Positions 4,818 to 64,000 of a stretch of 64,000 nucleotides of DNA are shown piece by piece. How positions within the stretch are numbered: position 1 is the stretch's first letter; every line of letters begins with the position of its first letter. A model generated the notes under the pieces. That model saw nothing but the letters and a program-made list of their open reading frames with translations. It had not been told where the DNA came from and ran no database searches. The stretch lies in NCBI GenBank assembly GCA_001972305.1, contig BDDD01002234.1, positions 62,001 to 126,000 of the forward strand. Reading direction: 5' to 3'. The position numbers and the translations under genes were made by a program. The stretch comes from Cephalotus follicularis. Its lineage: Eukaryota > Streptophyta > Magnoliopsida > Oxalidales > Cephalotaceae.

Positions 4818-6255
4818 CTGTAAAGTAGGGGGTTAGCCTTTGTCCTCACTCAGCTAAGTCATAAGGGTACTTTGGGATCAACATTACATGCATGTCATGA
4901 AATGTATGCATAGATGATGCAGTTCAGTAGAAAATACCAGTTTATATATATATCTAAAAATATATATAGTTTAGCAGTACAGTAAAATATCAGTAAGGAC
5001 ATATATATGAAAATATATCTATGCAATAAACGTAGAGTAGTAACCCGACCAGGGCTACATCGACAGGCACAGTAATGTCCGAGAAGGACTAGCAGGCAGT
5101 ACAGTAAGTCCTCAAAGGGACCACAAACAGGCAGGCAGTATGTGCAACGCTGCCAACTCCTGGCCCCACGTTACATTCCCACTTCGGTCCTTTCTCCAGG
5201 CAACCAAGCAAGACAACAGTGCAGTACAGTGAGTTACCCAGCCAACTCATGGCTCCTACGTCAACCCTACCACTAGCCAACGCTAGCAGCCTCCGCCATG
5301 CAACTAGTGGCTCAAGTACAAACACATAAAATTCACAGAGCAAACAGTGAATAGTCACAGTAAATTGTGCAGCAAACAGTATAGTAATGATCGTTAGATC
5401 AACAACAGGCAGTTTATTTCCAAATATTTTCAGAGGTGATAACATTTGAAATATGTATTTCTAATAGATAGAAAATACTTTAAATAGTTCAGTTGTGGAT
5501 ATCTCTTTCCAAATATGTTCAAAAATATAACAATATTCATTTTATATTTTCGTACTCAAAATAGTAGTTTTCAACTCGTATATGCACTTCTAATATAACA
5601 ATACTTAGAAATCATAATCAAGTTATAACTAGTCAATAACAAGCAGTAAACAGTACATATACAATATACAAATGCTTAAATGCATCCTAACAGGAATCGG
5701 GATCGTTTCGTATCGTTAAATAAGAAAACTCCCAAATAGTACAAGAAGGCGTCGATGTCTATTATTAGGCGTCGATGTCTTTGTCCCTCAGCGTCGACGT
5801 TCAAGTCCTTAGTGTCAGCACTTTCCACTGTTTGAAGACTTCGATGTCCATCTTTACACGCATAGACGCTCAAGGTATGGAACCTTAAACGTTAGCGTAT
5901 TGCTTAAGGCTTCAACGCGATAGGGTAGGAACCTTAGGCATCGATGTACAATACGTCAATATCCAAGCAAATAACCCAAAGGCGTCGATGTTCTTCAAAG
6001 ACGTCGATGTGTTTCGAGCACCGGTCGTCTTCTTCCTCACGACGTGACAAACAGTGACCATCAAAATCCACATACATGCCAGACAACATGTAATCAAGGC
6101 AGGAATTTAACATGCAAATACATATCATATACTCGGCATAACATGGCATTGACTCAGTGATCCAAAAACAGTTCAAAAATCATGTAATCTATGCACAAAA
6201 ACCATCGTCCAGGCATGAACATTAATCTCAAGAATATGATTATGGCTTCCCCTAC
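4818..6255 (-). other. Predicted leader intron inside LTR (element 1)
   Basis: On the minus strand the donor reads AAAAG|GTAGGGG at 6255. The acceptor is a pyrimidine-rich tract ending CTTTACAG at 4818. The same pair of sites occurs at equivalent places in the F, B, A, D, C and H LTRs. Splicing is inferred from sequence only. Confidence 0.45.
5749..6010 (-). repeat. GTCGAY-core short repeat array, element 1 LTR
   Basis: Copies of GCGTCGATG/GCGTCGACG begin at 5749, 5769, 5791 and 5812 (spacing 20, 22, 21), with degenerate copies at 5838 and 5860 and further ones at 5938, 5982 and 6001. The spacers are unrelated to each other. This is the same architecture as the clearer arrays in the F, B and 51.6-53.4 kb LTRs. 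Confidence 0.7.
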
Positions 6256-31778: not shown

Positions 31779-33395
31779 CTGTACCTGACCCATTACAAGA
31801 ATGGGTCAGCAACCCATGGCTGTGTATGCTATACTATATGCTATGAAATGCAGCATACACTCAAATGTCATAGGCCCGTAGACACTCCATAAAACAATCC
31901 ATAACCATCCATGGGGACAATCAATCCACAGGTTCAAGTACTTCTCTGCCACTCCGACCCGAGATAGTACCCCCACCGTCTATACACCCTCTGTGCCATA
32001 GCCGTGTGGAGCATAGGATAACACCAGCCACATAATCCATACCATACCATAATACTAGTCCCGAAGGTACTAGCCCATAAGAGATCTGTCCGATCTATGC
32101 CATAACCATATCATATCCATCCACAATGTGGTAATCCTTGTAGGTTCACCCAAAAATGGAGGATTACCATATCCATAATATGTGGCCTAGACACATAATT
32201 CTTCATGACAGAAATGAAGAATATGAATGGGTTATCCCGTTAAGTCTCAACCATAATAAACCATCAATCATAGCTGTACCATACCCATAGCCCATAACCA
32301 TGTTTCCATTTAAAGGATATGGACCTAACCATAAAGGATCACATAGGATCCATCCGTCAAAACCATTTTCAAAAACCATTTTCCAAAACAATATTTCCAT
32401 GACCATTTTCCATAACCATTTTCTTGGTCCCTATCGGAGTTGTAAAACAATGGAGAGGAAGTCCAACTAGGATATCCGCGTCCAGACGTCCCAATTGAGC
32501 TATCCTAACCATTTTTGAAAACCATTTGTATAAAACCCCTTTTTGATGAAACTTTCTTTAAAGATTTACTTTGAAGATTGATTTAGAAATCAAAGGTGTT
32601 AAAAGAGGATTCCCATAGGCTAAAACCCCATAGGGAGGCTTCCTATGGAATCCATTTGAAGATAAAATCATTTGGGATTGAAAACCATGTTGAAATCACA
32701 TGTTTGCTGTGTAGATCCCTGTTTGTGCGTCGACGCTTACGCAGCGCATCGACGCGTTAGGCGCTGAGAAAGCATAGCACGTAGAAGTACAAGGCTATGT
32801 GTCGACGTGCAAGCAATACGCCAAGGTTACGCGTCGACGTGCAAGTTGCGCATCGATATTATGCGTTGTACTGCAATGTTGCGCGTCAACGTGCTATGTG
32901 CACGTCGATAATGCGCGTCGCACATCGATGCTTTGGGTCGACGTGTTGCACTAATTAGCGCATAAAAATGCAAGGGATCATATAACGCGTCGAGGTTCAA
33001 GCTGAACGTTAACGTGCTGGGCACTGAAGAACACGTCGACGTGCAATATGAACAAGTCAACGTGTTGGGTCTTCTTAGCACTGTAAAAATTGATCAAAAC
33101 TCTTTTAAACCGTTTAAAATTTGATTGAAATGAAGCTATAAGCTCCAAACATCAACTAAAACTCAAACACAGTTTTTAAACCATTGAAATCCATTCCCAT
33201 AACCCTTAGATCAAGAGAAAGCGTAATTTGGGTAAAAGTCCCAACTCTCCAATTTCTCTCAAATCTCCAATTAAATCCGTTATTTACCACACCCAGTACC
33301 TTAATTCATCCATCTAACATATAATCATCAATCCATAGCCATACCAGCATGCAAATCCATCATAATATGAAAATCAAAGCATATGTAGAACCTAC
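31779..33395 (-). other. Predicted leader intron in 3' LTR of gypsy A
   Basis: Donor CAATTTGAG|GTAGGTTC at 33395; acceptor GGGTCAGGTACAG at 31779. The 5' LTR has the same sites at 51021 and 49113 (there TATAG). Sequence inference only. Confidence 0.4.
32727..33065 (-). repeat. CGTCGACGTGCAAG-type repeat cluster, gypsy A 3' LTR
   Basis: Many copies of a CGTCGACG core, often extended to CGTCGACGTGCAAG or CGTCAACGTGCT (32727, 32746, 32779, 32800, 32832, 32851, 32884, 32903 and onward). Several intervals are 19-21 bp, others 13 or 32-33. A matching cluster is at 50353-50695 in the 5' LTR. Confidence 0.7.
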
Positions 33396-36531: not shown

Positions 36532-36852
36532 GATCTGTCACACCCCCTTATTCCATTGAGACAACATATACGGTGATATCAGTTATAAATAATGATCCAG
36601 CGTTCAACATTAATGAAACCATAGCGGAAGCATTCCATTTCCCGGATTATAAAAATGAAAGTCATCCGCACGCAGCCAATACTACGTGCTTGTACAATAC
36701 CCATAATTATCCTTTTACATATTGGAAAAGTAAAAACATCAACGGAGTGTGAACGTTCATTTAGGTACAAAACATAAATTAATAACAACCTTAAGAAATA
36801 GAAGCTCTCCAATAAAGCTTCAGAAGCAGTTCCCCGAACGCCTTCACTTAAT

Positions 36853-38082
36853 CTGAAATTGTAGGGGGGTTAGCCGTTGTCCTCACTTGGCTAAGTAGGA
36901 GAAAAGCATGATAAAGAATATATAAATATAACATGCATGTCAGTTAACTGAACTAATATATATGTAAGTATTCTAATATATATAAGCAACCATGCCAAGT
37001 GGCCGTAGACAATACAATTCAGGAATACTGCACAAGGGTAAAATCAATCAATACAGTGGTTTGGGTGTCACATGTCGCTAACTCCTAGCACCAACTGTGC
37101 ACCACCTAACTATCACCCTACACTCCGAAGATGATAATCAGGTCAATTCTACCAGCAAATAGTGGGTAGGTAACAGTCAGGATCTGCATTGCAGATAAGT
37201 GTGGTGGAAACTCTAGCCAACTCCTGGCACCTAGGACCACCCCGTAGCTATTAATGTCTCCAATCACTCAACTCACAGCAATAAGCATAGACAAACAGTT
37301 CAATCAATTCAGAATATTACCTATATCTATAATATGCAATATAATAGTAGTTTTCTTTTTGAAACCTTTAACAATTCAGTGGCCGTACCTCTCTTGGAGG
37401 AAACAGTATTCAGTACATTAATGGTGCCTCTCATTGGAGGAAAATCAGTAATTCGTTTGACAATGAGATTTCATTTGGAAAACGATAAGGAAATCCATAT
37501 GCGTGCTTATAGCACTAGTTGGTTTAATCATTATATTAAGCGTAGCAGTAGTGGTTATGAACACTTAATAAATATACAGTAAGTATAACAGCATCAATAA
37601 ACAGCAGCGGGACAATCACAAGTCAAGGGTTCCAACTAGATGTTAGTATACCCTAGTCATTTGCACAACTCTCATAATGAATGCGAAAGTTGTTTACTTC
37701 CAGCAATGTAACTACATAGGCCAGGATTGACTATCACAATCATCCCATATGGAGGCCAGGGTAATTACACACAACTAAAAGCCTAACTGCAGCTAATCTG
37801 TTTATTCTGTCGCCCAACAGTCGGTTGTTCATAAGAATAGCCGGTTGTTTTCATTTGGCAGTCGACTGTTTGTCCTTAACAGTCGACTATTTACATTGAG
37901 TAGTTGACTATTGGGATTAAACAGTTGACTGTTCTTGCCCAGAGACACCAGGCAGCAGTTTCACAAAACAGGGTATGCATGCTCACAATCAATTTCCAAT
38001 CAATCAACAACATGCAATCATGCAGAAAACATCCAGGCATGAAATACATATTATATCTTCTAAAGCATGTCAAAACCCCTAC
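36853..38082 (-). other. Predicted leader intron in 3' LTR of gypsy B
   Basis: Donor GCAATTGAG|GTAGGGG at 38082; acceptor CTACAATTTCAG at 36853. The 5' LTR has the same sites at 45402 and 44143. The 21-bp array lies inside the intron, about 150 nt from the donor. Confidence 0.48.
37818..37931 (-). repeat. 21-bp-phased CAGTCGACTG array, 3' LTR of B (6 units)
   Basis: Ten-base near-palindromes start at 37818, 37838, 37859, 37880, 37901 and 37922, intervals 20, 21, 21, 21, 21. Cores vary (GTCGGT, GCCGGT, GTCGAC, GTCGAC, GTTGAC, GTTGAC). The ~11-bp spacers are mostly unrelated. Confidence 0.9.
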
Positions 38083-38850
38083 CTCAATTGCTATCCCGGA
38101 ATCAAATTGAGTTGATTCCTCTCTTTGAGTTCCAAGTCCTTCACCCAACTCAATCCTCCAAATTCTAGTAATTAATCTATATGGATGCATGTATACAGGT
38201 TTAGATGTCAACCCAAGTACGTTCATCTAGTTATCTAGTCATGATAACAACAAAATCGGAACCAGGAGCTTACAATCAATTTCCTAAGTTCCATTTTCCA
38301 TTTCCTAACTAAACCAAGTTCAATCTCCAATTTCCAGGCTTATTACTGATGATCATGTTTAATCAGTAAGGTTATAAAACGAATATGCTACTATTTAACT
38401 ATAACCTCAACAATAACAGAACTTGGAGCTTACCAGGAATCAAAGCTTCAACTCCTCCTTTGAACTCCAATCCTTCAACATGCATCCACTTGCCAATGGC
38501 TACTGTCCAATGCGTTTCCTTCTCTCTCAAGTGTTTCCAACACTCCTTTCCATCCCTCAGTAGTTGATATAAAGGTTTCAAACCTTAGAACTCGCCAGAT
38601 TCCATTAATTCAGCCTCCTCCCTTCTCTCTCTCTCTCACATGCACATGTCTTTCTTTGCTATTTCTCACATGTTTTGCAGGTTGCAGGTCTGCAAGTCTT
38701 GCAGAAGGAATAGAGGACATGCAAGGCATCACCCTTGCATGTAGTTACAGCTGGTGGCATGCATCCCTCATGCATGCCATGATTAGAACACTTGTCATCA
38801 CTGTCTCTGCTCTGTTTCACGCATGCACAGACACCTGTTTTGTGTCATTC

Positions 38851-38930
38851 CAGTCGACTGTCGTCCTGTGACAGTTGACTGTCTCTTCCACGAATCAACC
38901 AGTCGACTGTTACCCTGTGGCAGTCGGCTG
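38851..38930 (-). repeat. Promoter-proximal CAGTCGACTG pair-of-pairs, 3' LTR of B
   Basis: Units at 38851, 38872, 38900 and 38921: intervals 21, 28, 21. The same arrangement is at 46170-46249 in the 5' LTR and, with 29-bp gaps, at 62308-62438 in element F. On the minus strand it lies upstream of the likely TATA box. Confidence 0.88.
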
Positions 38931-39103
38931 TTTGAGCTGATTTTAGGGTTCCTTAAGTTTGTTTTACCCATTTGCATTTTCAATTTAACCCAAGCATACA
39001 CTAATCATGATTATTTTGATATTGAACAAATAATCTCAATTAAAATGTATATTTTATTTAAAATTTGAGCAATATACATTAATTGAAAATCGAGGTCATT
39101 ACA

Positions 39104-39142: not shown

Positions 39143-40639
39143 TTACATTCTGAATAAGTGAGGAAATGTCTCCATCATTTCGTCTTCACGCTCCCACGTA
39201 GCTTCCTCTGCTCCGTGAAAACGCCATAGTACTTTTACCATAGGAATAGTCTTATTCCTCTGCACCTTTTCCATTCGATCCACGATCCTCGTCGGCCTCT
39301 CTTCATAAGACAATTTATTACTGATGAATCCAGGGTCGTAGCTCAATATGCGAGATGGGTCAGGTACGTATTTTCGTAACATGGAAACATGAAATACGTT
39401 ATGCACACCCGACAAACTGGGCCGTAGTGCAATATGATATGCCACATCCCCCACTCTTTCAAGTATCTCATAAGGTCCAATATACCTTGGAGCCAACTTC
39501 CCCTTGAGGCCAAAATGGTGTATCCCTTTCGAAGGCGAGATCTTCAGAAAAACATGATCTCCCTTCTCAAATTCTAGCTTCCTCCTTTTGACGTTGGCGT
39601 AACTCTTTTGCCCACTCTGTGCAACTAGCAGTCTTTTCTTGATTATTTCCACTTTATCAGTAGTCTCTTGTACCAAGTCTGGTCCCAGCACTTGTTTATC
39701 ACCTACCTCGTCCCATCAAATAGGCGATCTGCATTTTCTCCCATACAAGGATTCATAGGGAGCCATTCCTATGCTGGTGTGAAATCTGTTGTTGTAAGAG
39801 AACTCAATCAGTGCCGAATGATCCTCCCAACTCCCAGTAAAATCAATCATGCAAGCCCGTAGCATATCCTCCAAAGTCTGAATGGTACGTTCGGATTGTC
39901 CGTCGGTCTGTGGGTGGAACGCAGTACTGAAGTTCAATGTAGTTCCCAGCGTCGCTTGGAACTTCTTCCAGAATCTTGAAGTGAATCTAGCATCACTGAC
40001 CGGCACTCCATGCAATCTCACTATCTCCCGGATATACAATCGAGCCAGCTTCTCAATAGAATACGTCACGTTCATTGGAAGAAAGTGAGCAGACTTGGTG
40101 AGTCTGTCCACTATAATCCACACTGCTTCATGCTGATTCCGTGACCTCGGTAACCCCGATACGAAGTCCATGGTCACATGCTCCCATTTCCACTCAACCA
40201 CTGGTAGCGATTATAACAGTCCCACAGGTTTCTGATGTTCAACCTTCACTCTCTGACAGGTCAAATATCTTGCTACATATTCAGCAATCTCTCTTTGCAT
40301 ACCACTCCACCAGTGATTCTTTATCAGGTCATGCCACATCTTGGAACTTCTCGGGTGAACACTGTATTTTGACTTGTGGGCTTGTTCCAGTAGCTCATTC
40401 CTGATGTTCTCGTCATCCAGAACACATATCCTTCCTCGGAACCTCAATATGCCATCAGTATGAATGGAGAATTCAGAATCAGTGTCATGGTTCTCACGAA
40501 TACACCATAACTCGATGTCACTATACTGAGCAGTCAGAATACGCTCCAGAAGTTCTGGTTGTGCTCTAAGATTTTCCACAATAACCCCTCGGGAAACCAT
40601 GAACGGATTCCATCTCTGAAAATCCTCCAATAGCTTCCA
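39143..40639 (-). pseudogene. Integrase and chromodomain tail, gypsy B
   Basis: Zinc finger at about 40270-40420: HKSKYSVHPRSSKM keeps both His, but the first Cys of CLTC is Tyr (ARYLTCQ). The core begins [16 protein letters not shown] near 40190; the [15 protein letters not shown] block is near 39890. Where sister proteins have VPVSIVCDRDSIF or SDRD, B reads [14 protein letters not shown] near 40000, so about five residues containing the catalytic Asp are deleted in frame. Stops interrupt near 40203, 39692 and 40631. The tail is complete: RIVDRMEKVQRNKTIPMV, LWRFHGAEEATWERED and METFPHLFRM, a Tekay-type chromodomain ending at 39143. Confidence 0.9.
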
Positions 40640-41134
40640 CTATAAAACCATTGCGCCAGCAATCATTGCCTTGCGACTCAGCACATCCGCCACTACGTTA
40701 GCCTTTCCTAGGTGGTATTGAATGTTGCAGTTATAATCATTAAAGAATTCCACCCATCGTCTCTGCCTCAAGTTGAGCTCCTTCTGGGAAAACAAATACT
40801 TTAAGCTTTTATGGTCCGTGAAGATCTCAAATTGAGCAGCATAGAGATAGTGCCTCCATTTCTTCAAAGCGAATACTATGGCTACCAACTCAAGATCGTG
40901 TACGGGATAATTTTCTTCGTATGGCTTTAAATTCCTCGATGCGTATGCAATCACTCTAGCATGTTGCATAAGGACGCCTCCCAATCCTTTCCCAGAAGCA
41001 TCAGTATAGACAGTAAAGCCCTCATTACCCTCCGGTAATGCCAACACTGGAACCGAAATCAACCGACTCTTCAACTCTTGGAAACTTGCCTCACAAGAAT
41101 CATCCCACACAAAACTTGACCTCTTCTGAGTCAA
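40640..41134 (-). pseudogene. RNase H, gypsy B
   Basis: A 164-codon open frame covering the RT connection and RNase H. The acidic residues are in [29 protein letters not shown] and [13 protein letters not shown]; the last block, [11 protein letters not shown], is also present (ADALSR in most relatives). The domain itself looks intact. It is bounded by stops on both sides (TAG codons at Gln-like positions near 40638 and 41133), so it can no longer be made as part of a polyprotein. Confidence 0.88.
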
Positions 41135-41959
41135 CTATGTCAATGGTGTAGCAAGCTTCGAAAACCCTTTGATGAACCTTCGGTAGTAGCCAGCCAATCC
41201 CAAGAAGCTCCGAACCTCAGTAACGCTCCTCGGTTGGGGCCAATCAACAATACTCTCTATCTTCGAAGGATCCATCGACAATCCTTCACTCGACACAATG
41301 TGACCTAAGAAAGTCACATGATCCAGCCAAAACTCGCACTTGCTGAATTTGGCGAATAATTGTTCCTTCCGCAATGTCTGCGATACAATTCTCAAATGCT
41401 GCATGTGTTCCTCAATGCTCCTTGAATAAATCAGGATGTCGTCTAGGAATATAACGACAAACTGGTCAAGATAGGGCTGGAACACTTTGTTCATCAAACA
41501 CATGAAGGCTGCAAGAGCATTTGTCAAACCAAATGGCAGTATCAGAAATTCGTAATGCCCATATCTGGTTCGAAATGCGGTCTTCTCCACATCACCTTTT
41601 CGGATCCTCAACTGATGATAACCTGTTCTCAGGTCAAGTTTGGAGAATACAGTTGAGCCTTGCAATTGGTCGAACAATTCCTCAATATGTGGCAGAGCAT
41701 ACTTAATCTTCACAGTTACCTGATTAAGCAGCCTGTAATCGATGCATAGCCGCATAGATCCGTCATTCTTTTTTACAAACAGGACCGGTGCTCTTCACGG
41801 TGACACACTCGGTCTGATGAAGCCCTTATCAAGATAATCCTACAATTGAGTCTTCAACTCCTTTAATTCAGCAGGAGCCATTCGGTACGGAGCCTTTGAT
41901 ATAGGAGCAGTCCCTGGCAATAGTTCAATGCTGAACTCTACATCTCTCTCCGGTGGCAA
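41135..41959 (-). pseudogene. Reverse transcriptase, gypsy B
   Basis: From the [14 protein letters not shown] linker near 41890 to [20 protein letters not shown] near 41150. The palm has [36 protein letters not shown] and [10 protein letters not shown]. The catalytic box is FLDD ([12 protein letters not shown], near 41440), a conservative variant of FIDD. Two stops occur at 41800-41845: one at the Gln of QLQD (CAG to TAG) and one at the Trp of SPWGAP (TGG to TGA). The remaining 206 codons from MRLCIDYR are uninterrupted. Confidence 0.9.
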
Positions 41960-42559
41960 CGAAGTGAGATCATCTGGAAATACATCAGGAAAATCACATA
42001 CAACAAGAACTTGTTCAATACTAGGCGTACCTTTCGTATGATCAATCACATACGCCAAATATCCTTCGCATCCTTGCTTGAGACACTTCTGTGCTCGAGT
42101 ATACGAAATGATCGGAACAGAAACATTCTTCTCCTCGATAAACTTGCACTCAGTCCCATCTTGAAGATAAAATGTCATCATCTTGTTGTAGCAATCAACA
42201 CAAGCATGATGAGCATACAACCAGTCCATTCCCAAGATTACATCGAAATCCCGGATAGGCAACACTGTCAAGTCAGCAGATAACTGAATCCCAGCTACCA
42301 TGATCTCACAATTTTTCATCATAGTGTCAGATAGAAGACAAGTACCAGCTGGAGTACTCGCCTCCAATACATAAGGTAATCTAGATGTAATACCATGCAA
42401 TTTGTGAGCAAATTCAGATGCAATGAATGAATGTGTCGCACCAGGATCAATTAGTACATGAGCTAGTATTCCAAATATAAAAATTGTACCTCCCACAACA
42501 GTAGTAGATTCTGGCACATCATCTCGAGATAAGGTGTAGACCCTACCTTTCACAATCCC
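41960..42559 (-). pseudogene. Aspartic protease, gypsy B
   Basis: Lies in a 436-codon frame shared with the end of Gag (41840-43150), so Gag and Pol are one ORF here. The active-site triplet is D-P-G-A in HVLIDPGATHSFIAS near 42460, where relatives have [23 protein letters not shown] follows near 42230, then FPDDLTSLPPERDVEF. The frame is open throughout this domain; it is called a pseudogene because the polyprotein as a whole is broken. Confidence 0.87.
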
Positions 42560-43717
42560 TTCCCCAGTATCCTTTCGCGGTTGAGCAGCCGCAGCACTAC
42601 CACTAGCACCAACACTTCCCTGTTGGCCGCGTGCTTGATGCCTCATCATTGGACAACCACTCAGTATATGTTCTTGTGAACCATACCTCAAGCATTTCCC
42701 CATCTTTTTCCAACATTCAGTCTCATCATGGTTCTGGCGACCACAAAAAGCACATCCACCCGAATTCTGTTGACCGCTTCGGTTAGGAGTTCTTGATCGC
42801 GAATTCCTGCGTCGAGAACCTCCTTGACCTCTGTTGTCAAACCTTGTCAACTTAGCAGGATTATTACTCCCCTGCACCTGTGACTGTGCGGCCCTCGATT
42901 GATTAGTACGAGACCGTTCCGCTCTCCTTTCATTAGTATCGGCTTCCAAAATCATCGCCCTTTCAGCAATATCTACAAAAGAAGTTAGCTGCAACATTAA
43001 CAGTTTAGATCTGATGTCAGGTCGAAGGCCTTTTAGGAACTTTCGGATCATTCGCGATTCACCCTCCACCAGATAGGGTGTATGTCGTGCCAGCTCCACA
43101 AATCTAGTCTGGTACTGAGCTACCGTCATATCCCCTTGACGTAACTCCATCAGCTCTGTCTCCCTCTGGTCACGTTCTATCTGTGGTACATAAGTTGCAA
43201 GGAACTCTGACTGAAATATGTCCCAGATCCTGTCAAGTCTGCGAGATTCCCACCTTGCTTCAATCCTTTCCCACCAATAGGTAGCTTCGCCCCATAAGCG
43301 CTATACAGCAAAGTTGAGTTTCTGCTCATCAGTACACTCCAGGGCAGCAAATATTTTCTCCAGGTCTCTAATCCACTGTTCAGCCACAGTAGCATTCAGC
43401 TCACCATTGAATATCAGAGGATTATGTCTCATGAACCGCTCCAAATCTTTGCCGAATCCACCAGTATGATAAGCTTCAGGAGCCTGCTAATAGGCCCGGT
43501 TAGCCTCGTACATCTGTCGTATCTGCTCCATGTTCGCCGCATTGGCTTGCATCTACTGTTGGAAGAGGTTAGCCATGCCGTCAAAATTACTCCTCTCTTC
43601 TTGTACTGGAGGAATATTCACTCCTTCATTCGCTGGCGGATCATGTTCGTGCATTGGCGGTGCATTGACTCCTTCATCGGCTCTACGCCTTCCTCTTCTA
43701 CCTCTTCGTAGGTCCAT
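42560..43717 (-). pseudogene. Gag, gypsy B
   Basis: Starts at ATG 43715-43717 with a basic segment (MDLRRGRRGRRRADEG). The capsid has FMRHNPLIFNGELNATVAEQ, DLEKIFAALECTDEQK near 43340, then GEATYWWERIEARW, MELRQGDMTVAQYQTRFVEL and FLKGLRPDIRS. The nucleocapsid near 42660-42770 has CAFCGRQNHDETEC and CLRYGSQEHILSGC, the second with Cys replaced by Tyr. Stops break the frame near 43555, 43490 and 43303. From 43150 down the frame is open and runs into protease without a break. Confidence 0.89.
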
Positions 43718-43819: not shown

Positions 43820-45116
43820 TGCTGTCACACCCCGTTATTCCATTAAGACAACATATATGGTGATATTAGTTATAAATAATGATCCAGCATTCAACATTAA
43901 TGAAACCATAGCGAAAGCATTCCATTTGCTAGATTATAAAAATGAAAGTCATCCACACGCAGCCCATACTACGTGCTTGTACAATACCCACAGTTACCCT
44001 TTTACATATTGGAAAAGTAAAAACAACAACAACGGAGTGTGAACGTTCATTTCTGTACAAAACATAAATTAATAACAACCTTAACAAATAGAAGCTCTCC
44101 CATAAAGCTTCAGCAGTAGTTCCCCGAACGCCTTCACTTAATCTGAAATTGTATGGGGGTTAGCCGTTGTCCTCACTTGGCTAAGTAGGAGTAAAGCATG
44201 ATAAAGAATATATAAATGTAACATGCATGTCAGTTAACTGAAATAATATATATATATATAACTATTCCAATATATATGAGCAACCATGCCAAGTGGCCAT
44301 AGACAATACAATTCAGGAATACTGCACAAGGGTAAAATAAATCAATACAGTGGTTTGGGTGTTACATGTCGCTAACTCCTAGCACCAACTGTGCACCACC
44401 TAACTATCACCCTACACTCCGAAGATGATAATCAGGTCAATTTTGCCAGCAAATAGCGGGCAGGTGACAGTCAGGATCTGCATTGCAGATAAGTGTGGTG
44501 GAAACTCTAGCCAACTCCTGGCACCTAGGACCACCCCGTAGCAAGTGATGTCTCCTATCACTCGACGCACGGCAATAAGCATAGACAAACAGTTCAATCA
44601 ATTCAGTAATAGTATTACATATATCTATAATGTGCAATATAATAGTAGTTTTCTTTTTGAAACCTTTAACAATTCAGTTACCGTACCTCTCTTGGAGGAA
44701 ACAGTATTCAGTACATTAACGGTGCCTCTCATTGGAGGAAAATCAGAAATTCATTTTGACAATGTGATTTCATTTGGAAAACGATAAGGAAATCCATATG
44801 CGTGCTTATAGCACTAGTTGGTTTAATCATTATATTAAGCGTAGCAGTAGTGGTTATGAACACTTAATAAATATACAGTAAGTATAACAGCATCAATAAA
44901 CAGCAGCGGGACAATCACAAGTCAAGGGTTCCAACTAGATGTTAGTATACCCTAGTCATTTGCACAACTCTCACAATGAATGCAAAAGTTGTTTCCTTCC
45001 AGCAATGTAACTACATAGGCCAGGATTGACTATCACAATAATCCCATATGGAGGCCAGGGTAATTACACATAACAAAAAGCCTAATTGTAGCTAATCTGT
45101 GTATTCTGTCGCCCAA

Positions 45117-45251
45117 TAGTCAGCTATTCATAAGAATAGCTGACTGTTTTCATTAGGCAGTCGATTGTTTGTCCTTAACAGTCGACTGTTTGTCCTTAAC
45201 AGTTGACTGTTTACATTGAGTAGTCGACTGTTGGGATTAAATAGTCGACTG
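45117..45251 (-). repeat. 21-bp-phased CAGTCGACTG array, 5' LTR of B (7 units)
   Basis: Units start at 45117, 45137, 45158, 45179, 45200, 45221 and 45242: intervals 20 then 21 five times. The units at 45158 and 45179 share the same spacer (TTTGTCCTTAA), marking the duplicated unit absent from the 3' LTR. Confidence 0.92.
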
Positions 45252-46169
45252 TTCTTGGCCAGAGACGCCAGACAGCAGTTTCACAAAACAGGGTATGCAT
45301 GCTCACAATCAATTTCCAATCAATCAACAACATGCAATCATACAGAAAACATCCAGGCATGAAATACATATTATATCTTCTAAAGCATGTCAAAACCCCT
45401 ACCTCAATTGCTATCCCGGAATCAAATTGAGTTGATTCCTCTCTTTCAGTTCCAAGTCCTTCACCCAACTCAATCCTCCAAATTCTAGTAATCAATCTAT
45501 ATGGTTGCATGTATACAGGTTTAGATGTCAACCCAAGTACGTTCATCTAATTATCTAGTTATGATAACAACAAAATCGAAACCAGGAGCTTACAATCAAT
45601 TTCCTAAGTTCCATTTTACATTTCCTGACTAAAGCAAGTTCAATCTCCAATTTCGAGGCTTATTACTGATGATTATGTTTAATCAGTAAGGTTATAAAAC
45701 CAATATGCTACTGTTAACTATAACCTCAACAATAACAGAACTTGGAGCTTACCAGGAATCAAAGCTTCAACTCCTCCTTTGAACTCCAATCCTTCAACAT
45801 GCATCCACTTGCCAACAGCTATTGTCCAATGCATTTCCTTCTCTCTCAAGTGTTTCCAACACTCCTTTCCATCCCTCAGTAGTTGATATAGAGGTTTCAA
45901 ACCTTAGAACTCGCTAGATTCCATTAATTTAGCCTCCTCCCTTCTCTCTCTCTCTCACATGCACATGTCTTTCTTTGCTATTTCTCACATGTTTTGCAGG
46001 TTGCAGGTCTGCAAGTCTTGTAGAAGGAATAGAGGACATGCAAGGCATCACCCTTGCATGTAGTTACAGCTGGTGGCATGCATCCCTCATGCATGCCACG
46101 ATTAGAACACTTGTCATCACTGTCTCTGCTCTGTTTCACGCATGCACAGACACATGTTTTGTGTCGTTC

Positions 46170-46249
46170 CAGTCGACTGTCGTCCTGTGATAGTCGACTG
46201 TCTCTTCCACGAATCAACCAGTCGACTGTTACCCTGTGGCAGTCTGCTG
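46170..46249 (-). repeat. Promoter-proximal CAGTCGACTG cluster, 5' LTR of B
   Basis: Units at 46170, 46191, 46219 and 46240, intervals 21, 28, 21, matching 38851-38930 in the other LTR. Confidence 0.88.
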
Positions 46250-46426
46250 TTTGAGCTGATTTTAGGGTTCCTTAAGTTTATTTTACCAATTTGCATTTTC
46301 AATTTAAGCCAAGCATACACTAATCACGATTATTTTGATATTGAACAAATAATCTCAATTAAAATGTATATTTTATTTAAAATTGGAGCAATATACATTA
46401 ATTGAAAATCGAGGTCATTACAGATC

Positions 46427-49184: not shown

Positions 49185-49185
<1 letters not shown>

Positions 49186-49224
<39 letters not shown>
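49186..49224. repeat. (AT)n microsatellite
   Basis: 39 bp of uninterrupted TA/AT repeat inside gypsy A's 5' LTR, at the left edge of the 200-bp duplication. It is absent from the 3' LTR. Confidence 0.97.
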
Positions 49225-49227
<3 letters not shown>

Positions 49228-50352: not shown

Positions 50353-50695
50353 TGCATCGATGCTTACGTAGCGCGTCAATGCATTGGGCACTGAGAATGC
50401 ATAGCACGTCGAAGTGCAAGGCTGTGTGTCGACGTGCAAGCAATACGTCAAGGTTACGCGTCGACGTGCAAGTTGCGCGTCAATATTATGCGTTGCACTG
50501 CAATGTTACGCGTCAACATGCTATGTGCACGTTGATACTGTACGTCGCACGTCGGTGCTTCTCATCGATGTGTTGCATTGATTAGCGCATAAAAACGGAA
50601 GGGATCACATAAGGAGTCGACTTTCAAACTGAACGTTGACGTGCTAGGCATTGCAGAACACGTCGACGTGCAATATGAACACATCGACGCGTTGG
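50353..50695 (-). repeat. CGTCGACGTGCAAG-type cluster, gypsy A 5' LTR
   Basis: Counterpart of 32727-33065. It has the cores CATCGATGCTT, ACGTCGAAGTGCAAG, GTGTCGACGTGCAAG, GCGTCGACGTGCAAG and others; several differ between the two LTRs only at the CpG within the core (for example CGTCGA versus CATCGA). Confidence 0.7.
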
Positions 50696-51208: not shown

Positions 51209-51221
51209 CTATATAGATATA
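51209..51221 (-). promoter_or_regulatory. TATA-like element in gypsy A 5' LTR
   Basis: Plus strand TATATAGATATAG; on the minus strand CTATATCTATATA, about 200 bp inside the LTR 5' end and 190 bp before the predicted donor at 51021. The 3' LTR has the same block at 33582-33594. Confidence 0.5.
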
Positions 51222-51419
51222 GGCTCCTTTAGGCGAAAATCTCAAAATCTACGATCATGTTCAATTGAAGCCCCATTACCCGCAAACAGTCATAAAAGTG
51301 GAAAATATTATATATCATATACAATCCATGCCATCCATACATACAATACCGTACAATACTGTATAAGTACAAACAAAATACATACAATTCCGTACTTGTA
51401 GAAAAATATGGGGCTTACA

Positions 51420-51600: not shown

Positions 51601-53356
51601 AAAATATGATTTCATCAAATCATTTGAAAAATAAAACGTTTCCCAAACCATTATCATAAATCGTACTCAAACGATATAGTTTGACATACTTTCATAATAA
51701 AAAAAAAATCAACTCATTTAATTTCACGATAGATGGTTGCATATCATTTCGTAAATACATTGTAACTGATTTCATAAAGTTAGAATATTTACTTCATAAA
51801 ATATCAAATAACTTTATTTCCAAAAACCCAAACATACGGAATTCATAAACCAAAGTAAGCATATTCATAAACTGAGTGATAACAAAACCAGAATCTGTAT
51901 TTAATCTCAACGGAACTGAAACAGTAAGAATATGTCAAGGAACGAAGAATCCGTACCTTGTGCGATCACAATTAAGCTTACGAATAACTTAAAAGTCCCA
52001 CGTAGCACACAAATCTATACAATAGGAAAACATTCATATAAGGGTCTAAATTTCATTTTGGGCATATAACAGAATAATAATGATGTTTACAAATAATTCC
52101 GGATCATCGGAAGAATAAACGGACGAAAACATAAGTTTACAGGACAAACCAGTCGACTGTTTGAAGAATCCAGTCGACTAACAATGGATGGCAGTCGACT
52201 ACACAACAGGGCCAGTCGACTACACAACCTGGACTTGTAGACAGTCGACTGGATCAGGGGTCCAGTCGACTACTCAACTAGACAGTCAACTTGTTCATAC
52301 TGACAGTCGACTGTTCTGGGTATCAGAACAGCAGTTCAGTGCAGTTTGTGCAATTTTGGCAACCAAAACTCGGATTTTTCGATACCAGAAGGTTACCAAC
52401 ATGTAAAACAACTCCATATGACATGTAAAACACTGTTACAACACATAATTCGACAAAGGCATGTTGACAGAAAATTGTTTAAGGTGACAGGGACTCTAAA
52501 CCATAATATACCAATTCATAATTAAATTCTGTCCACTTATGATGATCATATGCATCAACAACATATTATATATCAATTCTTAGATGTCTACAGATTGCTA
52601 TAAACACATGCTCATTCGACAAAAAATCAAGAAGGGCAGAAACCAAAACTACACCTTCAATGACAACTTAAACATGACAAAACAATTCATGGATCATATC
52701 AACACATAACCATCACAGTGGAGTAACAACTAACCTATAATGGTGACAAAGATTGATGAGAAAACAAGCTGCCCGACAAAATCAAAGGGGAAGGATACAC
52801 ATTCAAAACTTTGGCAATGCTATGCAATAACCCATAAAATAAATTCTATATTAATCCTTTGATGAAACTAACCTTTTTAATGGAGCAAAAGACACGAAAA
52901 TTACAGCCCTTGATGCACAACAAATCGGCAGTAGCACACACCAAGAGAGACACGGCAGAAACGATTTTGCATAGCCTCTCATATATATAGCCAGGAGTCC
53001 AAATGGGAAAGAATACAAAGAAAGGAAACCAAATCTGCTAGGATAAGGAATGTGGACTGATTTCTGGGGAGATAAGGAAGAAAAGATTGAGTTGTGAGGG
53101 AGAAGGAGATTGGGAAAGAGTGGAGTACGGGAGAGAGAGGGAGAGTTGGAAGAGAAATAGGAAAGAAATAGAAATAAAAAGGAAATAAAATAAGTATTAA
53201 GGATTTTGTTTTAAAGTAATTCTATAAATATAATTATGTGTTTAATAAAATGGTTTATAATAACAATAATAAATATAATATAACTAATTTTCCCAACACA
53301 AAATCCATACTATCAAGCCCAACTTTAAGGCTGGTATCAGACAGCCCAAATCATGC
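51601..53356 (-). repeat. LTR fragment with CAGTCGACTG array (minus orientation)
   Basis: No coding sequence. The donor GCACAAG|GTACGGATTC at 51956 and its surroundings resemble element D's LTR at 25740-25810, so this is a related but distinct chromovirus LTR in minus orientation. A TATATATA element lies at 52983-52990. Both ends are breaks: copia at 51600 and a G-type LTR at 53357. Confidence 0.65.
52150..52313 (-). repeat. 21-bp-phased CAGTCGACTG array (8 units)
   Basis: Units start at 52150, 52171, 52192, 52213, 52242, 52263, 52283 and 52304: intervals 21, 21, 21, 29, 21, 20, 21. Seven of eight keep GTCGAC exactly; one is GTCAAC. The spacers are unrelated. Confidence 0.92.
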
Positions 53357-55013: not shown

Positions 55014-56090
55014 TGTTGACATTTATGTCTCAATCTGGATTTTGATGATAACATATTTGTATTTAACAAAGTTTCTTTCTGTGCAAGTTAAGAAAAAATT
55101 TTGCAAAGTCAAAACAGGAAATTACAGATATAGGACTAAGCGTCGACGGTGATAATGATTCCGTCAGCGCTTTGTGAGACCTTCGACGCCCAAGTCCAAA
55201 GCGTCAACAGTTGAAACATTTTGAGCAAAGGAGAAATTGCTTAAACCGTCGACGCTCTGAAGAAAGTACCAGTAATTTGAGCTAAGGCGTCAGCGGTTAA
55301 ACACTCCATATCAGCATTTAAAAACAGAAACTTTTGGGCCAATTAAAATTGCTCAAAATGGCGACGCTCAGCACAAACCGTCAGCACTTTGAGGGAAACC
55401 GTCGACCCCAAATTCAAGACCATCTGCGCTTTGAGAAGAACATTTCAAATTCAAACATCCAACGGACACATAAGCGGCGACGCTTTGAATGACTCCGTCT
55501 ATGCTTTGCACTGCTGGGAACAATTACTAACAACATTTATAATGTGCCATCTTTGAAGGAACAAGTCCCAAGACTGAAGTAACAATTCCCAAGACAGAAA
55601 TAACGAGTTCCAAGACAAAAGCAGCTATTCCCAAGGTTCCAAACATTACCTCTATTAATTCAAATCAGCTAAAAACACAAGAACACAAGAAATAAAAAAG
55701 AGATCTAGATCAAACAAGCAAAGAGATTATCAAGAGAAAATCCTCCACTTTCAAATCAACATCAAAGCAAGAAGAAGATCTTTTCATCTATCTGTGAGCT
55801 ATTATTTTCTTGTAATCATATAGCCATATCAAACCTTTAAGAGCTTACACAAAATAAATCATCCTTGTAATCCACACTTGTAAAGGGGAGTGAATCCTAA
55901 GTGAGAAATAGGAGTGAACCCTAGTGATTGAGGTCAATCACAAAAATTTGTAAGGTGCACCGAATATCCCCTGGTAAAGATATTCGAAGATTGTATTCGG
56001 GTGGAATACTAGTGGAATCTCAAGGAGGACCTTGGGAAAGTGGACGTAGGCATGATCTTTGTCGAAACACTATAAATTCTTGTTTGCTTC
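55014..56090 (+). repeat. Copia LTR fragment 2
   Basis: 1077 bp from TGTTGACATTTATGTCTCA. Near the end it has GGAATCTCAAGGAGG and AAAGTGGACGTAGGC, followed by CGAAACACTATAAATTC, motifs I associate with plant copia LTRs of the SIRE/Angela kind. It is cut at 56090 before a CA terminus. It shares its first part with 28423-29256. Cores at 55142, 55163, 55182 and 55203 are 19-21 bp apart; others continue to about 55505. Confidence 0.82.
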
Positions 56091-59140: not shown

Positions 59141-60367
59141 TGTCACGCCCCATTTTTTGAGAAGACAACATTAAAGCAATAAAGGCAATTAACATATAAA
59201 TTCAGCTCATGTAAATACCCTAAAATTTAAACTTTTAAATGAGATATCGATTGCGGAAGCATTAAACTCATAAGCTGAAAACTCCTAACTTGCATCCCAT
59301 ACTGCACACTACTCAAACAAATCTGTCATTGTTAATAGCCCTCAAAACGGTGCGTGATCACACTACAATAGTAAATCTAATCATTAAAAAAAACCATAAG
59401 TATGGTACATTAGTAGTCCTTAAACAAAATCAGGCTTATTACAAATCAGGAGAATTAAAACCAAGAACAACGACAACATAACAACATGTTCTTCTTCCAT
59501 ACCAGTCCAACCGGTCCACTACATCAATCTGTAAAGTAGGGGGTTAGCCTTTGTCCTCACTCGGCTAAGTCATAAAAGTAGCTCGGGATCAATATTAAAT
59601 GCATGTCATGTGATGTATGCATAAATGATGCAGTGTAGGAAATACCAGTTTATATATACATGAAAAATATATATATTTTAGCGGTACAGTAAAAATAACA
59701 GTGGGCATATATATACGAAAATATATGTATGCAAGAACAGTACAATTATAACCCGGCCAGGGCTACATCAACAAGCACAGTAATGTCCAAAAAGGACCAG
59801 CAGTACAGTATGCCAACAAATGACCACAAGAGGAGGCAGTATGTGTAACGCCGCCAACTCCTGGTCCCACGCTACACTCCTACTTCGGTCCCTACTCCAG
59901 GCAACCAAGCGAGGCAACAGTACAGTATAGTGAGTCACCCAACCAACTCCTGGCCCCTAGGTCAACCCTACCACTAGCCGGGGCTGGCAGTCTCCGCCAT
60001 GCAACCAGTGGCTCTAGCACAACCACAATAAATTCACAGAGCAAGCAGTGAATCCAAATACTAAACAGTACAGTATTGATCGTTTAGATCGACAACAGGC
60101 AGTTCATTTTCAAATATTTTGAATAACATTTCAGGAGTAGGAATACTTTTGAACAAATCAGTAGTGTAAATCGCTTTCCAGTTTTTTCAAAAATTCGTTA
60201 TTAACAAATACATATTTTCATACTCAAAATAACGCTTTCCGAGTTCACATATGCATTTCTAAATATCATAACTTTAGAAATCATAAACGATTTACAAACA
60301 GTAAGCAAACAGGCAGTAAACAGTGTATATGCAATGCATACAAATGCTCAAATGCACCAAAACAGGA
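59141..60367 (-). repeat. 5' LTR of element E, interrupted
   Basis: Begins TGTCACGCCCC and aligns with element 1's LTR (4428 onward) up to AAATGCACCAAAACAGGA (compare 5675-5695), where element F's LTR starts. Paired motifs at 59853-59865 and 59942-59954, 89 bp apart as in element 1; acceptor-like CTTTACAG at 59529. The rest is beyond F, outside the window. Confidence 0.88.
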
Positions 60368-60734
60368 TGTCACACCCCGCTTGCATTAACAACACATCAA
60401 TTTAATAGATATCCTGCTTATACAGAGAATGATAAAATTTAAAACTTTTAAACAGACATCATCTGGTGGAAGCACATATGTATATAAGCTGAAACGAACG
60501 GAAACATGCGTCCCATACCGCATGATCCACACAAAACCTCATCATAACAAGTTAAAAGCCCACAAACGGAGCATGATCCAAAGTTAATACAACAACAATA
60601 GCAAAACATTAGTACATAAACCAAAGTACAACATGTTCGCTACATTGCTTAACAAAGCACTTAAAACATAAAACTCCGACACATCACTGTCCAGCACCAC
60701 CGTGCTCGGCGACATCCCAAAACGCAGCATCAAT

Positions 60735-61960
60735 CTGCAACAGTAGGGGGTTAGCCTTTGTCCTCACTCGGCCAAAGTCATAAAAACAACACAATATCAA
60801 TAAAATCAAAGTATGAAAGCAGCATGACGCAGTACATACTATATCTCGATGCATATATATAAATATAGATATGCATATGCCCAAACACGATGTCACAGTT
60901 CACAATGTCACGATATCACGATGCACGGTCTCAACCAAGTCCAAAGGACTACACAATAAATGGTTCACGGTTCACGGTACACGGTAGGTACGAAGAGCAT
61001 CACCAACTCCTGGCCCCGACGTCGTACATCCCGACATCGGCCCCAACTCCCGGCGGCACGAAGCAGGTCACAATACAGTAACTCACCCAGCCAACTCCTG
61101 GCCCCTGAGTCGACCAGACCACTAGTCATCGCTGGCATCTCCGCCACGTAACTAGTACGGCCACAATAAAAAACACAATCAGCAATCATAGTCAAGCTCA
61201 ATCACAATCGCAATCATCTCGATATCACAAAACTCGGTTCACGGTGTTTTTGGAAGTCATTTTCACGGTTCGAAAGTATATATTTCTCAAAACATATAAT
61301 TTCGTGTAAAGTAATGATTTTCATTAAGCTACAATGCACTTCCAGAAATATGTTATAACAGTTCAATCTAAATATCCACAATACTAAAAACAGTTCATAA
61401 AGCTTCACGAAGCAAAACATCACAATACACTATGCATACATATGTTCACGGGTAAAACAGGCCCCCAACAGTCAGCTGCCCACCACTGGCAGTCGACTGT
61501 CCCCCTCAAAGTAGTCGGCTGCCAGTCCCAGGCAGTCGGCTACATGACCAGGCAGTCGGATGTCTACATAGACAGTCGGCTGTCCACTCTCGACAGTCGG
61601 CTGGCCCTCAGGACAGTCGGCTGTCCACACCCCCACAGTCAGCTGTCGACCTACGACAGTCGACTACACAACCCCTGGAGACATATCCTGGACACGAACG
61701 TGGGCAGTCGACTGTCCTCCCTAGGACAGTCGGCTGGACCCCTAGGCAGCCGACTGCCCAGGGTGGGAAGTCGGTTGGATTCTGCAGCAGGTGGAAAAAT
61801 CAGCTGCTAAAACAGCCTCAATCACGCACCAAACACAACCCAAAATGACATATTTATGCACATACACGTTCCAAACTCACAATATAACATAAACATGCAT
61901 TTTATTTCATCAAAAACATTATCAATTGAAATTATGTTGCAAAAACGACTTCCCCCCTAC
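60735..61960 (-). other. Predicted leader intron in F LTR
   Basis: Donor TTCTAAG|GTAGGGG at 61960; acceptor CCCTACTGTTGCAG at 60735. The 21-bp array lies within it, about 180 nt from the donor. Confidence 0.48.
61469..61777 (-). repeat. 21-bp-phased CAGTCGRCTG array, element F (14 units)
   Basis: Unit starts: 61469, 61490, 61512, 61533, 61553, 61573, 61594, 61614, 61636, 61657, 61705, 61727, 61747 and 61768. Intervals are 21, 22, 21, 20, 20, 21, 20, 22, 21, 48, 22, 20, 21. Cores are mostly GTCGGC, also GTCGAC and GTCAGC. The 11-bp spacers show no shared sequence. Confidence 0.95.
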
Positions 61961-62307
61961 CTTAGAACTCCAAGTTAGGAGCTGCAATCCACCCCTTTGT
62001 GTCTAAATCCGAAGCTCTTGCAACCCCAACACGTCCAGCCACCTTATACCGGTCCGGATTCCCACTGTCAAGCCTCCAAGCTTCACGGTTTCAACACACA
62101 AGCTTCTCAAAGCTTCAACACACACACACTTTAACTCTCAACTCTTTAGAAATCTCTTGCAAACACAGGGAATGATGGAGAAAGAAGAGAGAAAGGATGT
62201 ATTTTACGGAGAAACCCCCGCCCCCTCCTCTGCCAAACGCAATAAATCCAAAACACTCTCCCATTTGTCACTTAAGGCAGACAACACGTGGGTTGTCTGG
62301 CGCATGG

Positions 62308-62438
62308 CAGTCGACTGCCTTGGATTGGCAGTCGGCTGTTTCTGCCGACACTCCTACCAGCCGGCTGCCTCCTCTTGGTAGCTGGCTGCCACGCCTCAGC
62401 AAGCGTCCAGTCGGCTGCCTCCCTGTGGCAGTCGGCTG
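62308..62438 (-). repeat. Promoter-proximal CAGTCGRCTG cluster, element F
   Basis: Units at 62308, 62329, 62358, 62379, 62408 and 62429: intervals 21, 29, 21, 29, 21. It lies about 140-270 bp inside the LTR 5' end, the same place as in gypsy B. Confidence 0.92.
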
Positions 62439-62581
62439 CCCCTGCACAAAAAACACACAACAACACACTTCTTGCAACATTCCAACACATGAAAGAGGGA
62501 AAATACGATTCTCATTAACACAAGGTGTAAAATTACATTGGAAAGCGATATTACACATAAATGAAAATCCCGGACGTTACA

Positions 62582-62626: not shown

Positions 62627-64000
62627 CTAGAACAAGTGAGAGTAACGCTCCCTCATCTCCTCTTCACGTTCCCAAGTTGCCTCTTCATAACGGTGAAACG
62701 GCCACTGAACCTTTACCATAGGAATGGTTCGGTTCCTCAGCACCTGCGTCTTCCAATCCAGGATCCGTACAGGCAATTCCTCGCAATATAGGGCATCTCG
62801 CACCGGACCTGAAGTAAAGTCCAGGACATGCGAAGGATCTCGGACATATCCCCGCAACATGGATACATGAAAGACATCATGTACACTTGACAGCACAGGA
62901 GGTAAAGCAAGCTGGTAAGCCACCTCCCCAACTCTTTCCAGAACCTCGAAGGGACCAATGTAGCATGGAGCTAACTTGCCCTTCTTCCCAAACCTCTGAA
63001 CGCCTTTCCACGGTGAAACCTTCAAAAACACGTGATCACCGACGTCGAAGGTTAGGGGTCTTCTTTTTACACTGTCAACGTACCTCTTCTGCCGACTCTG
63101 TGCAGCAATCAGTTTCTCCTTTATAAACTTGACTTTCTCAGAAGTCTCTTCCACCAGATCTGAGCCCAACAAAGGTCGTTCGCAAACCTTGTCCCAACAC
63201 ACAGGGGACCTACAATTCCTCCCATACAAAGCCTCAAACGGTGCCATGCCAATGCTGGAATGATAGCTGTTATTATAAGAAAACTCTATCAAAGGAATAT
63301 GATCCTCCCAGGTACCAGCAAAATGAACAATACAAGCTCAGAGCATATCCTCCAGGGTCTGGATAGTTTGCTCTGACTGGCCATCCGCCTGTGGGTGGAA
63401 AGCTGTGCTCAAGTTCAGCTTCATCCCAAACGCTGTCTGAAACCTCCTCCAAAAGTTGGAAGTGAAGATCGAGTCTCTGTCACAGACTATACTCACCGGA
63501 ACACCATGCAGTCTTACGATCTCCTTCACATACAACCGAGCCAACTTGCTCGCAGAGTCAGAAACATGAGTAGGCAAAAAGTGAGCTGACTTCGTGAGTC
63601 GATCCACAATTACCCACACTGCATTGTGGCAGCTCCGAGTCAAAGGAAAATCCGAAACAAAATCTATCGTAACATGCTCCCACTTCCACTCTGGAATCGG
63701 TAGGGGTTGCAGCAATCCTGCCGATCTCTGGTGCTCGGCCTTCACCGTCTGGCAAGTCAGACACTTTGCCACATACTCGGTAATCTCCAGCTTCATGCCG
63801 GGCCACCAGTAACACTTCTTCATGTCTTGATACATCTTGGTGCTACCAGGATGTATACTGTATGTAGATTTATGGGCCCCGTGAAGCAACCTATCCTTCA
63901 ACCCCGGTTCATTCGGAAGACACACACGTCCCCGATATCTCATAATGCCATCATCATGCACTCTAAAATCAGACTCCGAATCCAGATTCTCTCGAATCTG
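62627..64000 (-). pseudogene. Integrase with chromodomain tail, element F
   Basis: Two frames, 63338-63961 and 62627-63292, separated by one stop (TGA near 63337) at a Trp that element 1 keeps (EDMLWAC). The HHCC finger is intact: HKSTYSIHPG near 63870 and CLTCQ near 63760. The catalytic Asp in TIDFVSDFP is near 63660, CDRDSIF near 63470 and DGQSEQ near 63380. The C-terminal GPFEVLERVGEVAYQLALP block precedes VRILDWKTQVLRNRTIPMV and EEATWEREEEMRERYSHLF, a Tekay-type chromodomain tail ending at 62627. Apart from the single stop it looks functional. It would bind LTR ends and direct insertion, possibly to modified chromatin (known for chromovirus tails, inferred here). Confidence 0.91.

What the first reader, a model, noticed from the sequence alone, without database searches (positions are those of the whole stretch)
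61469..61777. Palindromes repeated every 21 bp with unconserved spacers in the F LTR
Fourteen copies of CAGTCGRCTG are spaced 20-22 bp apart (one gap of 48). The ten-base palindrome is conserved but the ~11-bp spacer sequence is not; only its length is. Ordinary tandem duplication would conserve the spacers, so either the array is very old with selection on palindrome and spacing, or it formed by another process. Twenty-one bases is two helical turns, which would put every site on the same face of DNA. Possible roles are a cooperative protein-binding platform, a chromatin or methylation nucleation site (each core has a CpG), or a source of structured RNA.
Basis: partly seen in the sequence, partly recalled or inferred. 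Interest (0 to 1): 0.88.

Follow-up and report, generated by a model that had tools for sequence, protein, structure and literature searches.

The report
Palindrome arrays shared by plant retrotransposons
In the pitcher plant Cephalotus, unrelated families of jumping genes carry rows of the same ten-letter palindrome spaced about 21 letters apart; the palindromes are preserved while the letters between them drift, so the rows are probably docking platforms for a DNA-binding protein that help the elements.

Summary
The array is real. Window 61469-61777 holds 14 sites within 2 mismatches of CAGTCGRCTG (7 exact); 12 of 13 gaps are 20-22 bp. It lies in the 3' LTR of a Ty3/gypsy element of Cephalotus follicularis. 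Genome-wide, motif pairs at this spacing number 83,969 against 263 for the reversed control. Arrays of this motif occur in several gypsy LTR families and in copia-gag elements. Between subfamilies palindromes are 85-95% identical, spacers 55-64%, LTR flanks 61-66%. After insertion, palindromes are not spared. So selection acts on replicating lineages, on palindromes rather than spacers. Other elements carry other palindromes (GCGTCGACGC, GCGTCAACGC, GACATCGATGTC types) at similar spacing; fetched arrays rarely mix motifs. Copia elements encoding a Transposase_32 (PF20167) protein mostly have such arrays, some just upstream of a TATA box, and the palindrome differs between the two deep protein clades. 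Best reading: LTR platforms for cooperative binding of a protein reading about 10 bp. A new variant of a known kind.

The parts
60368..62581 (-). F element 3' LTR (sense strand -, begins TGTAACGTCC, ends GTGTGACA)
   Evidence: sequence; one search shows the LTR/flank switch; one search prints both LTR ends; other LTR in L007/L008
61469..61777 (.). focal palindrome array, 14 sites, 805-1113 bp into the LTR
62308..62438 (.). second array in the same LTR, 5 sites, 144-274 bp into the LTR
62627..63337 (-). integrase C-terminal part (SH3_Tf2-1) of the F gypsy element
43822..46422 (-). LTR of gypsy element A with arrays 45137-45251 and 46170-46249
36535..39103 (-). partner LTR of element A with arrays 37818-37931 and 38851-38930
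39263..43681 (-). gag-pol region of gypsy element A
52150..52313 (.). 8-site CAGTCGACTG array in a third sequence group (W52); LTR of a gypsy element inferred from neighbouring gag-pol in related loci
32727..33057 (.). second-motif array (GTCGACG-type) in the LTR-like repeat 31384-33794
50373..50684 (.). second-motif array in the partner repeat 48717-51419
5749..6010 (.). array of GGCGTCGATGTC-type palindromes, about 18-29 bp apart, read by eye
55140..55370 (.). GCGTCGACG/GCGTCAACG-type array; the sequence just before it resembles the LTR start of L050 (by eye)

Best explanation
The arrays are cis-regulatory platforms in retrotransposon LTRs. A sequence-specific protein, probably a dimer reading about 10 bp (CAG-Y-CGACT-R), binds side by side at 20-22 bp intervals and promotes transcription or keeps the element out of silencing. 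An ancestral 21-bp unit was amplified by tandem duplication; selection on transposing lineages then kept palindromes and spacing while spacers drifted. Different groups of elements use different palindromes with similar spacing. Shown: the arrays, spacing, spread, conservation contrast, motif versions, and TATA adjacency in some copia elements. Inferred: protein binding, dimerisation, benefit to the element.
For: 83,969 pairs genome-wide against 263 reversed control. Palindromes more conserved than spacers in 72/72, 70/70, 42/42 and 10/10 ordered pairs in four array groups (two of them in gypsy A), and than flanks in 72/72, 70/70, 41/42 and 10/10; spacers about as divergent as flanks. All ten motif positions 0.71-0.97 conserved, neighbours 0.51-0.63. 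With spacing left free, 82 of 100 listed GTCGAC pairs are 19-22 bp apart, including 16 of the 23 that are not CAG-type. Same motif in gypsy and in copia-gag elements. Sites of both motif classes in only 4 of 103 fetched arrays. TATATAA 43-64 bp after the last palindrome in L057-L061 (5 of 5) and 30 bp in L050. In LTR partners palindromes differ at 38 of 640 positions, spacers 19 of 1001, flanks 187 of 6289, so copies are not preserved after insertion and the constraint sits in the active lineages.
Against: No binding, expression or methylation data. Several arrays, probably including the focal one (805-1113 bp into the LTR), seem to lie downstream of the likely promoter (weak TATA-like match near 376), and W52's array lies downstream of its TATA-like match. 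L014 and L016 gave no TATA match after the array with the expression used. The 27-29 and 48-52 bp gaps break helical phase. Homologous arrays were compared because they exist, so lost arrays are not counted; ordered pairs are not independent; the aligner may favour matching palindromes.
Confidence: 0.66

Rival explanations
1. Element-encoded reader: the Transposase_32 (PF20167) protein of copia elements binds the palindromes and activates or de-silences them, like VANC; gypsy LTRs with the same palindrome use it in trans.
For: Two deep Transposase_32 clades (24-27% identity; 100/100 support) go with different palindromes. Clade I: CAGYCGACTG in 5 of 6 loci fetched by gene position, and in L009, L014 and L016, which had been fetched for their arrays. 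Clade II: CGTCRACG- or ACATCGAT-type array downstream in 19 of 22 loci, 1 weak, 2 without. Protein under strong constraint: dN/dS 0.07-0.19 in the 9 of 12 pairs with usable dS. 50 of 111 listed clade I copies have no stop (best-scoring copies only). Basic N-terminal residues. A Transposase_32-like sunflower Athila protein has a predicted nuclear signal (PMC11728184, passages). Array and gene in one element parallel VANC/VANDAL (PMC5735166, passages).
Against: No DNA-binding evidence; both structure models failed (pLDDT 37.5 and 34.4); no credible solved relative. Gene and array are inherited together, so the clade-motif match may be a single event. L054 (clade II) also has a CAGTCGACTG array in the same 2.5 kb, whose owner I did not establish. 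L049, nearly identical in protein to GTCAAC-type neighbours, has its array in the other orientation. Within clade II the tree is poorly resolved.
Confidence: 0.27
2. Host reader: a stress transcription factor of the CBF/DREB type binds the GYCGAC core (CRT/DRE), making the LTRs cold- or drought-inducible.
For: GTCGAC and RYCGAC are listed as CRT/DRE elements (PMC9138379, table passage); MCIRE LTRs carry a CCGAC element and ONSEN LTRs heat elements (PMC5059998, passages). The most variable motif position is Y in GYCGAC.
Against: The outer CAG/CTG letters are about as conserved as the core. Most sites in clade II elements are GTCAAC, which lacks the CGAC core. The asymmetric CAGCCGACTG form sits in opposite orientations in different families.
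Confidence: 0.2
3. RNA function: palindromes fold or dimerise the genomic RNA, or feed small RNAs of about 21 nt.
For: Both strands of the focal array fold better than shuffles (z -2.86 sense, -8.70 antisense); period near small-RNA length.
Against: In copia, gypsy A and gypsy F the commonest sense forms are CAGTCGACTG and CAGCCGACTG; the latter leaves a C-A mismatch in RNA, while gypsy W52 uses the other form, so no consistent sense-RNA pairing is kept.
Confidence: 0.08
4. Neutral minisatellite: recent tandem duplications with no function.
For: A common 21-bp unit is still faintly visible; copia arrays repeat at about 123 bp.
Against: Spacers have diverged like flanks while the CpG-containing palindromes have not; arrays in different superfamilies and with different motifs.
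Confidence: 0.05

Closest known systems
VANC proteins and target tandem repeats of Arabidopsis VANDAL elements (PMC5735166 passages; PMC10398659 abstract)
   Same: Short motif in dense noncoding arrays inside mobile elements; different families use different motifs; an unrelated element shares a motif; arrays arise by tandem repetition; accessory gene in some array-bearing elements.
   Different: Host elements are LTR retrotransposons; motifs are palindromes at near-fixed 21-bp spacing; accessory protein is Transposase_32, not DUF1985; no binding or hypomethylation data here.
Heat-responsive elements in ONSEN and other Brassicaceae COPIA LTRs; CCGAC in MCIRE LTRs (PMC5059998, passages)
   Same: Clustered short transcription-factor-type sites in LTRs, recurrently gained, in ONSEN strengthened by duplication.
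   Different: Far longer arrays, two superfamilies in one genome, several palindrome versions; stress response untested.
Athila ORF with Transposase_32 similarity in sunflower (PMC11728184, passages)
   Same: Same Pfam family as an extra ORF in an LTR retrotransposon.
   Different: Here it accompanies a copia gag, with no pol domain found in the few ORFs scanned, and is associated with palindrome arrays.

Membership tests
VANC-type anti-silencing system | dense array of a short motif in noncoding DNA of the element | tested here: met
VANC-type anti-silencing system | accessory protein with DUF1985/DUF287 encoded in array-bearing elements | tested here: not met
   Pfam scans of 8 window ORFs, 9 ORFs of fetched loci and 12 proteins at relaxed cut-offs list no DUF1985 or DUF287. 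Only part of the elements' ORFs was scanned, and a whole-genome search for PF09331 did not complete.
VANC-type anti-silencing system | protein binds the motif and removes DNA methylation | not testable with these tools
   no binding or methylation data
ONSEN-type LTR with host stress-factor sites | LTR array of a known host factor's binding site | tested here: inconclusive
   GTCGAC/GCCGAC forms match listed CRT/DRE cores, GTCAAC forms do not
ONSEN-type LTR with host stress-factor sites | stress-induced transcription | not testable with these tools
   no expression data
Ty3/gypsy LTR retrotransposon (F element) | integrase domain beside TG..CA LTR | tested here: met
   SH3_Tf2-1 in 62627-63337; LTR ends
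tandem satellite/minisatellite | whole unit conserved between copies | tested here: not met
   spacers as diverged as flanks

The most novel reading that the evidence does not exclude
Cephalotus retrotransposons run a VANC-like trans-acting system: copia elements encode Transposase_32 proteins that recognise clade-specific palindromes arrayed at 21-bp steps in their LTRs, and gypsy families such as F have acquired the matching palindromes and exploit the protein, so protein clades and palindromes co-diversify across superfamilies.
Probability: 0.25. Interest if true: 0.92.

Novelty: new variant of a known kind. Interest (0 to 1): 0.74.

Why it matters
It points to one recognition code shared across retrotransposon superfamilies, written in palindromes that can be read straight from sequence, with tens of thousands of natural copies. 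If it is Transposase_32, it gives a function to a large plant transposon protein family and a second sequence-specific system like VANC, in retrotransposons. Either version is testable with one binding experiment.

Tried and rejected
Structure of Transposase_32: two AlphaFold2 jobs (30- and 27-row alignments) gave mean pLDDT 37.5 and 34.4; no fold search was run on them. PDB sequence search: best E 0.22, nothing credible.

CpG protection in the arrays: over six LTR pairs, CpG positions differing are 13 of 122 in palindromes and 49 of 250 in flanks (Fisher p 0.037), transitions 11 and 36 (p 0.18). This is a hint only: one of several contrasts looked at, and in the F pair palindromes differ at 11 of 180 positions, spacers 13 of 239, flanks 26 of 701, all contexts.

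Strict helical phasing: gaps longer than 24 bp show moderate phase coherence at 10.5 bp (R 0.51 and 0.39), no better than at 11 bp (0.60 and 0.39).

Whole-genome searches for CGTCGACG pairs and for PF09331 did not complete. Papers: CAGTCGACTG (29 papers, 20 listed, none a plant transposon paper by title), LTR/palindromic/21 bp (1 paper), Cephalotus with retrotransposon (9 papers), subrepeats/palindromic motif (10 of 35 listed): no description of these arrays was seen in these listings; the papers were not opened.

Sampling: the 18 contig C1 stretches were chosen from places listed for having motif pairs. Clade II loci were picked by me from the 150 best-scoring PF20167 hits (22 of 150); clade I loci from 111 listed (6 of 111, all without stops), plus L009, L014 and L016. 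The de novo scan of the window: 15 of 319 windows score 4 or more at 19-22 bp, 4 of 319 at 12-15 bp, 1 of 319 shuffled.

Full report
Observation. At 61469-61777 there are 14 sites within 2 mismatches of CAGTCGRCTG, 7 exact, with 12 of 13 gaps at 20-22 bp; uniform placement gave at most 9 such gaps in 200,000 trials. The array is in the 3' LTR (60368-62581, sense strand minus) of a Ty3/gypsy element whose integrase C-terminus is at 62627-63337. The element's other LTR, beyond the window, has the same gap series.

Where it is. The window is contig C2234:62001-126000 of a 1.577-Gb genome. A protein annotated in Cephalotus follicularis matches that genome at 100% over 363 residues, so the plant is Cephalotus. 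Genome-wide, CAGTCGRCTG N9-13 CAGTCGRCTG occurs 83,969 times on the forward strand against 263 for the reversed-pattern control; GTCGAC N5-30 GTCGAC 217,466 against 3,494. Of the 100 places listed, all on contig C1, 82 have a 19-22 bp step and 10 a 27-28 bp step, although 11-36 was allowed. In 18 ten-kb stretches of C1 chosen for having a pair, plus the window and L007/L008 (which overlap, so that one array is counted twice), distances peak at 20-22 bp and multiples, with further peaks at 27-29 and 48-50.

Which elements carry it. BLAST groups the arrays into at least gypsy A (two arrays per LTR), gypsy F, W52 (gypsy by neighbouring genes) and a copia group. The copia group has copia gag and Transposase_32 ORFs and the largest arrays, up to 18 sites. 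Not every LTR has one: in the direct-repeat pair 19244-20203/26776-27735 (probably LTRs, type not determined) no scan window reached the threshold.

Conservation. Homologous arrays of different subfamilies were aligned with 120 bp flanks (9, 9, 7 and 4 arrays; the first two groups are the two arrays of gypsy A; pairs with flank identity over 90% or under 60 flank columns dropped, leaving 72, 70, 42 and 10 ordered pairs). Identity of palindrome/spacer/flank: 0.952/0.553/0.619, 0.849/0.570/0.608, 0.866/0.592/0.620, 0.899/0.643/0.655. Each motif position is conserved at 0.71-0.97 against 0.51-0.63 just outside; the loosest are positions 4 (T or C) and 10 (G or A). In a gypsy A LTR alignment of six copies, three of four array palindromes matched by the expression lie above the 96th percentile of 10-column windows, the fourth at the 87th. 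Across six LTR pairs, partners differ at 38 of 640 palindrome, 19 of 1001 spacer and 187 of 6289 flank positions; CpG positions alone at 13 of 122 (palindrome) and 49 of 250 (flank). In the F pair the figures are 11 of 180, 13 of 239 and 26 of 701. Inserted copies are thus not preserved; the constraint is on the replicating lineages. The lower CpG figure hints at less methylation in the arrays but is weak.

Origin. Oriented by CAGCCGACTG, spacers show a faint CCACAGGR preference; CAGGG 16 of 52 and CCCTG 0 of 52 distinct downstream spacers. By group, among distinct 11-base spacers in element sense: copia CAGGG 10 of 37, gypsy A 5 of 28, W52 the reverse CCCTG 6 of 22, with its palindrome also in the reverse form; the opposite form was 0 in each. 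Arrays in different superfamilies thus descend from, or converged on, one asymmetric 21-bp unit.

Other motifs. Other LTRs carry arrays of GCGTCGACGC, GCGTCAACGC or GACATCGATGTC-type palindromes with peaks at 19-22, 29, 41, 50-52 and 61-63 bp (several of these loci are close relatives, so counts are not independent). In all fetched sequence 52 arrays are purely CAGTCGACTG-type, 47 purely of the other types and 4 have sites of both.

Partner gene. A first look found 13,073 candidate places for Transposase_32, of which 150 were scored. Downstream of 22 clade II genes, 19 have a clear array of the second class; one of these, L054, also has a CAGTCGACTG array whose owner I did not establish. L031 is weak. 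L052 and L055 run into other inserted sequence before an own LTR is seen; L052's CAGTCGACTG sites appear to belong to an inserted gypsy A LTR (by eye). Clade I: L009, L014 and L016, fetched for their arrays, and 5 of 6 loci fetched by gene position have CAGYCGACTG arrays; L062 has none in the 701 bp read. The two clades are 24-27% identical and separate with full support. Coding constraint is strong (dN/dS 0.07-0.19 in 9 of 12 pairs; three saturated). In L057-L061 TATATAA lies 43-64 bp past the last palindrome, in L050 30 bp; L014 and L016 gave no match past the array (6 of 8 examined).

Mechanism. A conserved 10-bp palindrome at two-turn spacing with free spacers, in LTRs of many families and close to TATA boxes in some, is best explained by cooperative binding of a dimeric protein. 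Known parallels are VANC target repeats (PMC5735166, passages; PMC10398659, abstract) and heat or cold elements in ONSEN, other COPIA and MCIRE LTRs (PMC5059998, passages). GTCGAC is listed as a CRT/DRE core (PMC9138379, table passage), but the GTCAAC versions lack it and the flanking CAG/CTG is conserved too, which weakens a DREB reader. Transposase_32 is a candidate because its clade matches the palindrome and it is kept under selection; its DNA binding is untested and its structure could not be predicted.

Limits. No expression, methylation or binding data; one species; loci chosen for having arrays or Transposase_32; genome letters were capped; several genome searches did not complete.

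Noticed in passing
L016 700-7850, L014 2600-7300, L009 4376-10000: Copia-type elements with gag plus a Transposase_32 ORF (in L014 only the latter was scanned) and no pol domain in the few ORFs scanned: probably non-autonomous carriers of an accessory gene.
   Followed up: partly
gypsy A LTR, about 260-282 bp from its start (window 46141-46163): A block like ACAGGTGTCTGTGCATG next to the array is conserved across gypsy A subfamilies, perhaps another regulatory element.
   Followed up: no
window 61003-61156, 5153-5308, 59854-60009: A CCAACTCCTGGC-containing stretch about 75% identical between different elements; a similar block is conserved in gypsy A LTRs.
   Followed up: no
window 49217-49416 and 49417-49616: Exact 200-bp tandem duplication inside an LTR-like repeat.
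   Followed up: no
L007 5398-8894: The other F LTR appears interrupted by about 3.5 kb of other sequence.
   Followed up: no
gypsy A LTR 3' part, about 1714-2286 bp from start: Long stretch conserved across subfamilies in an otherwise fast-evolving LTR.
   Followed up: no
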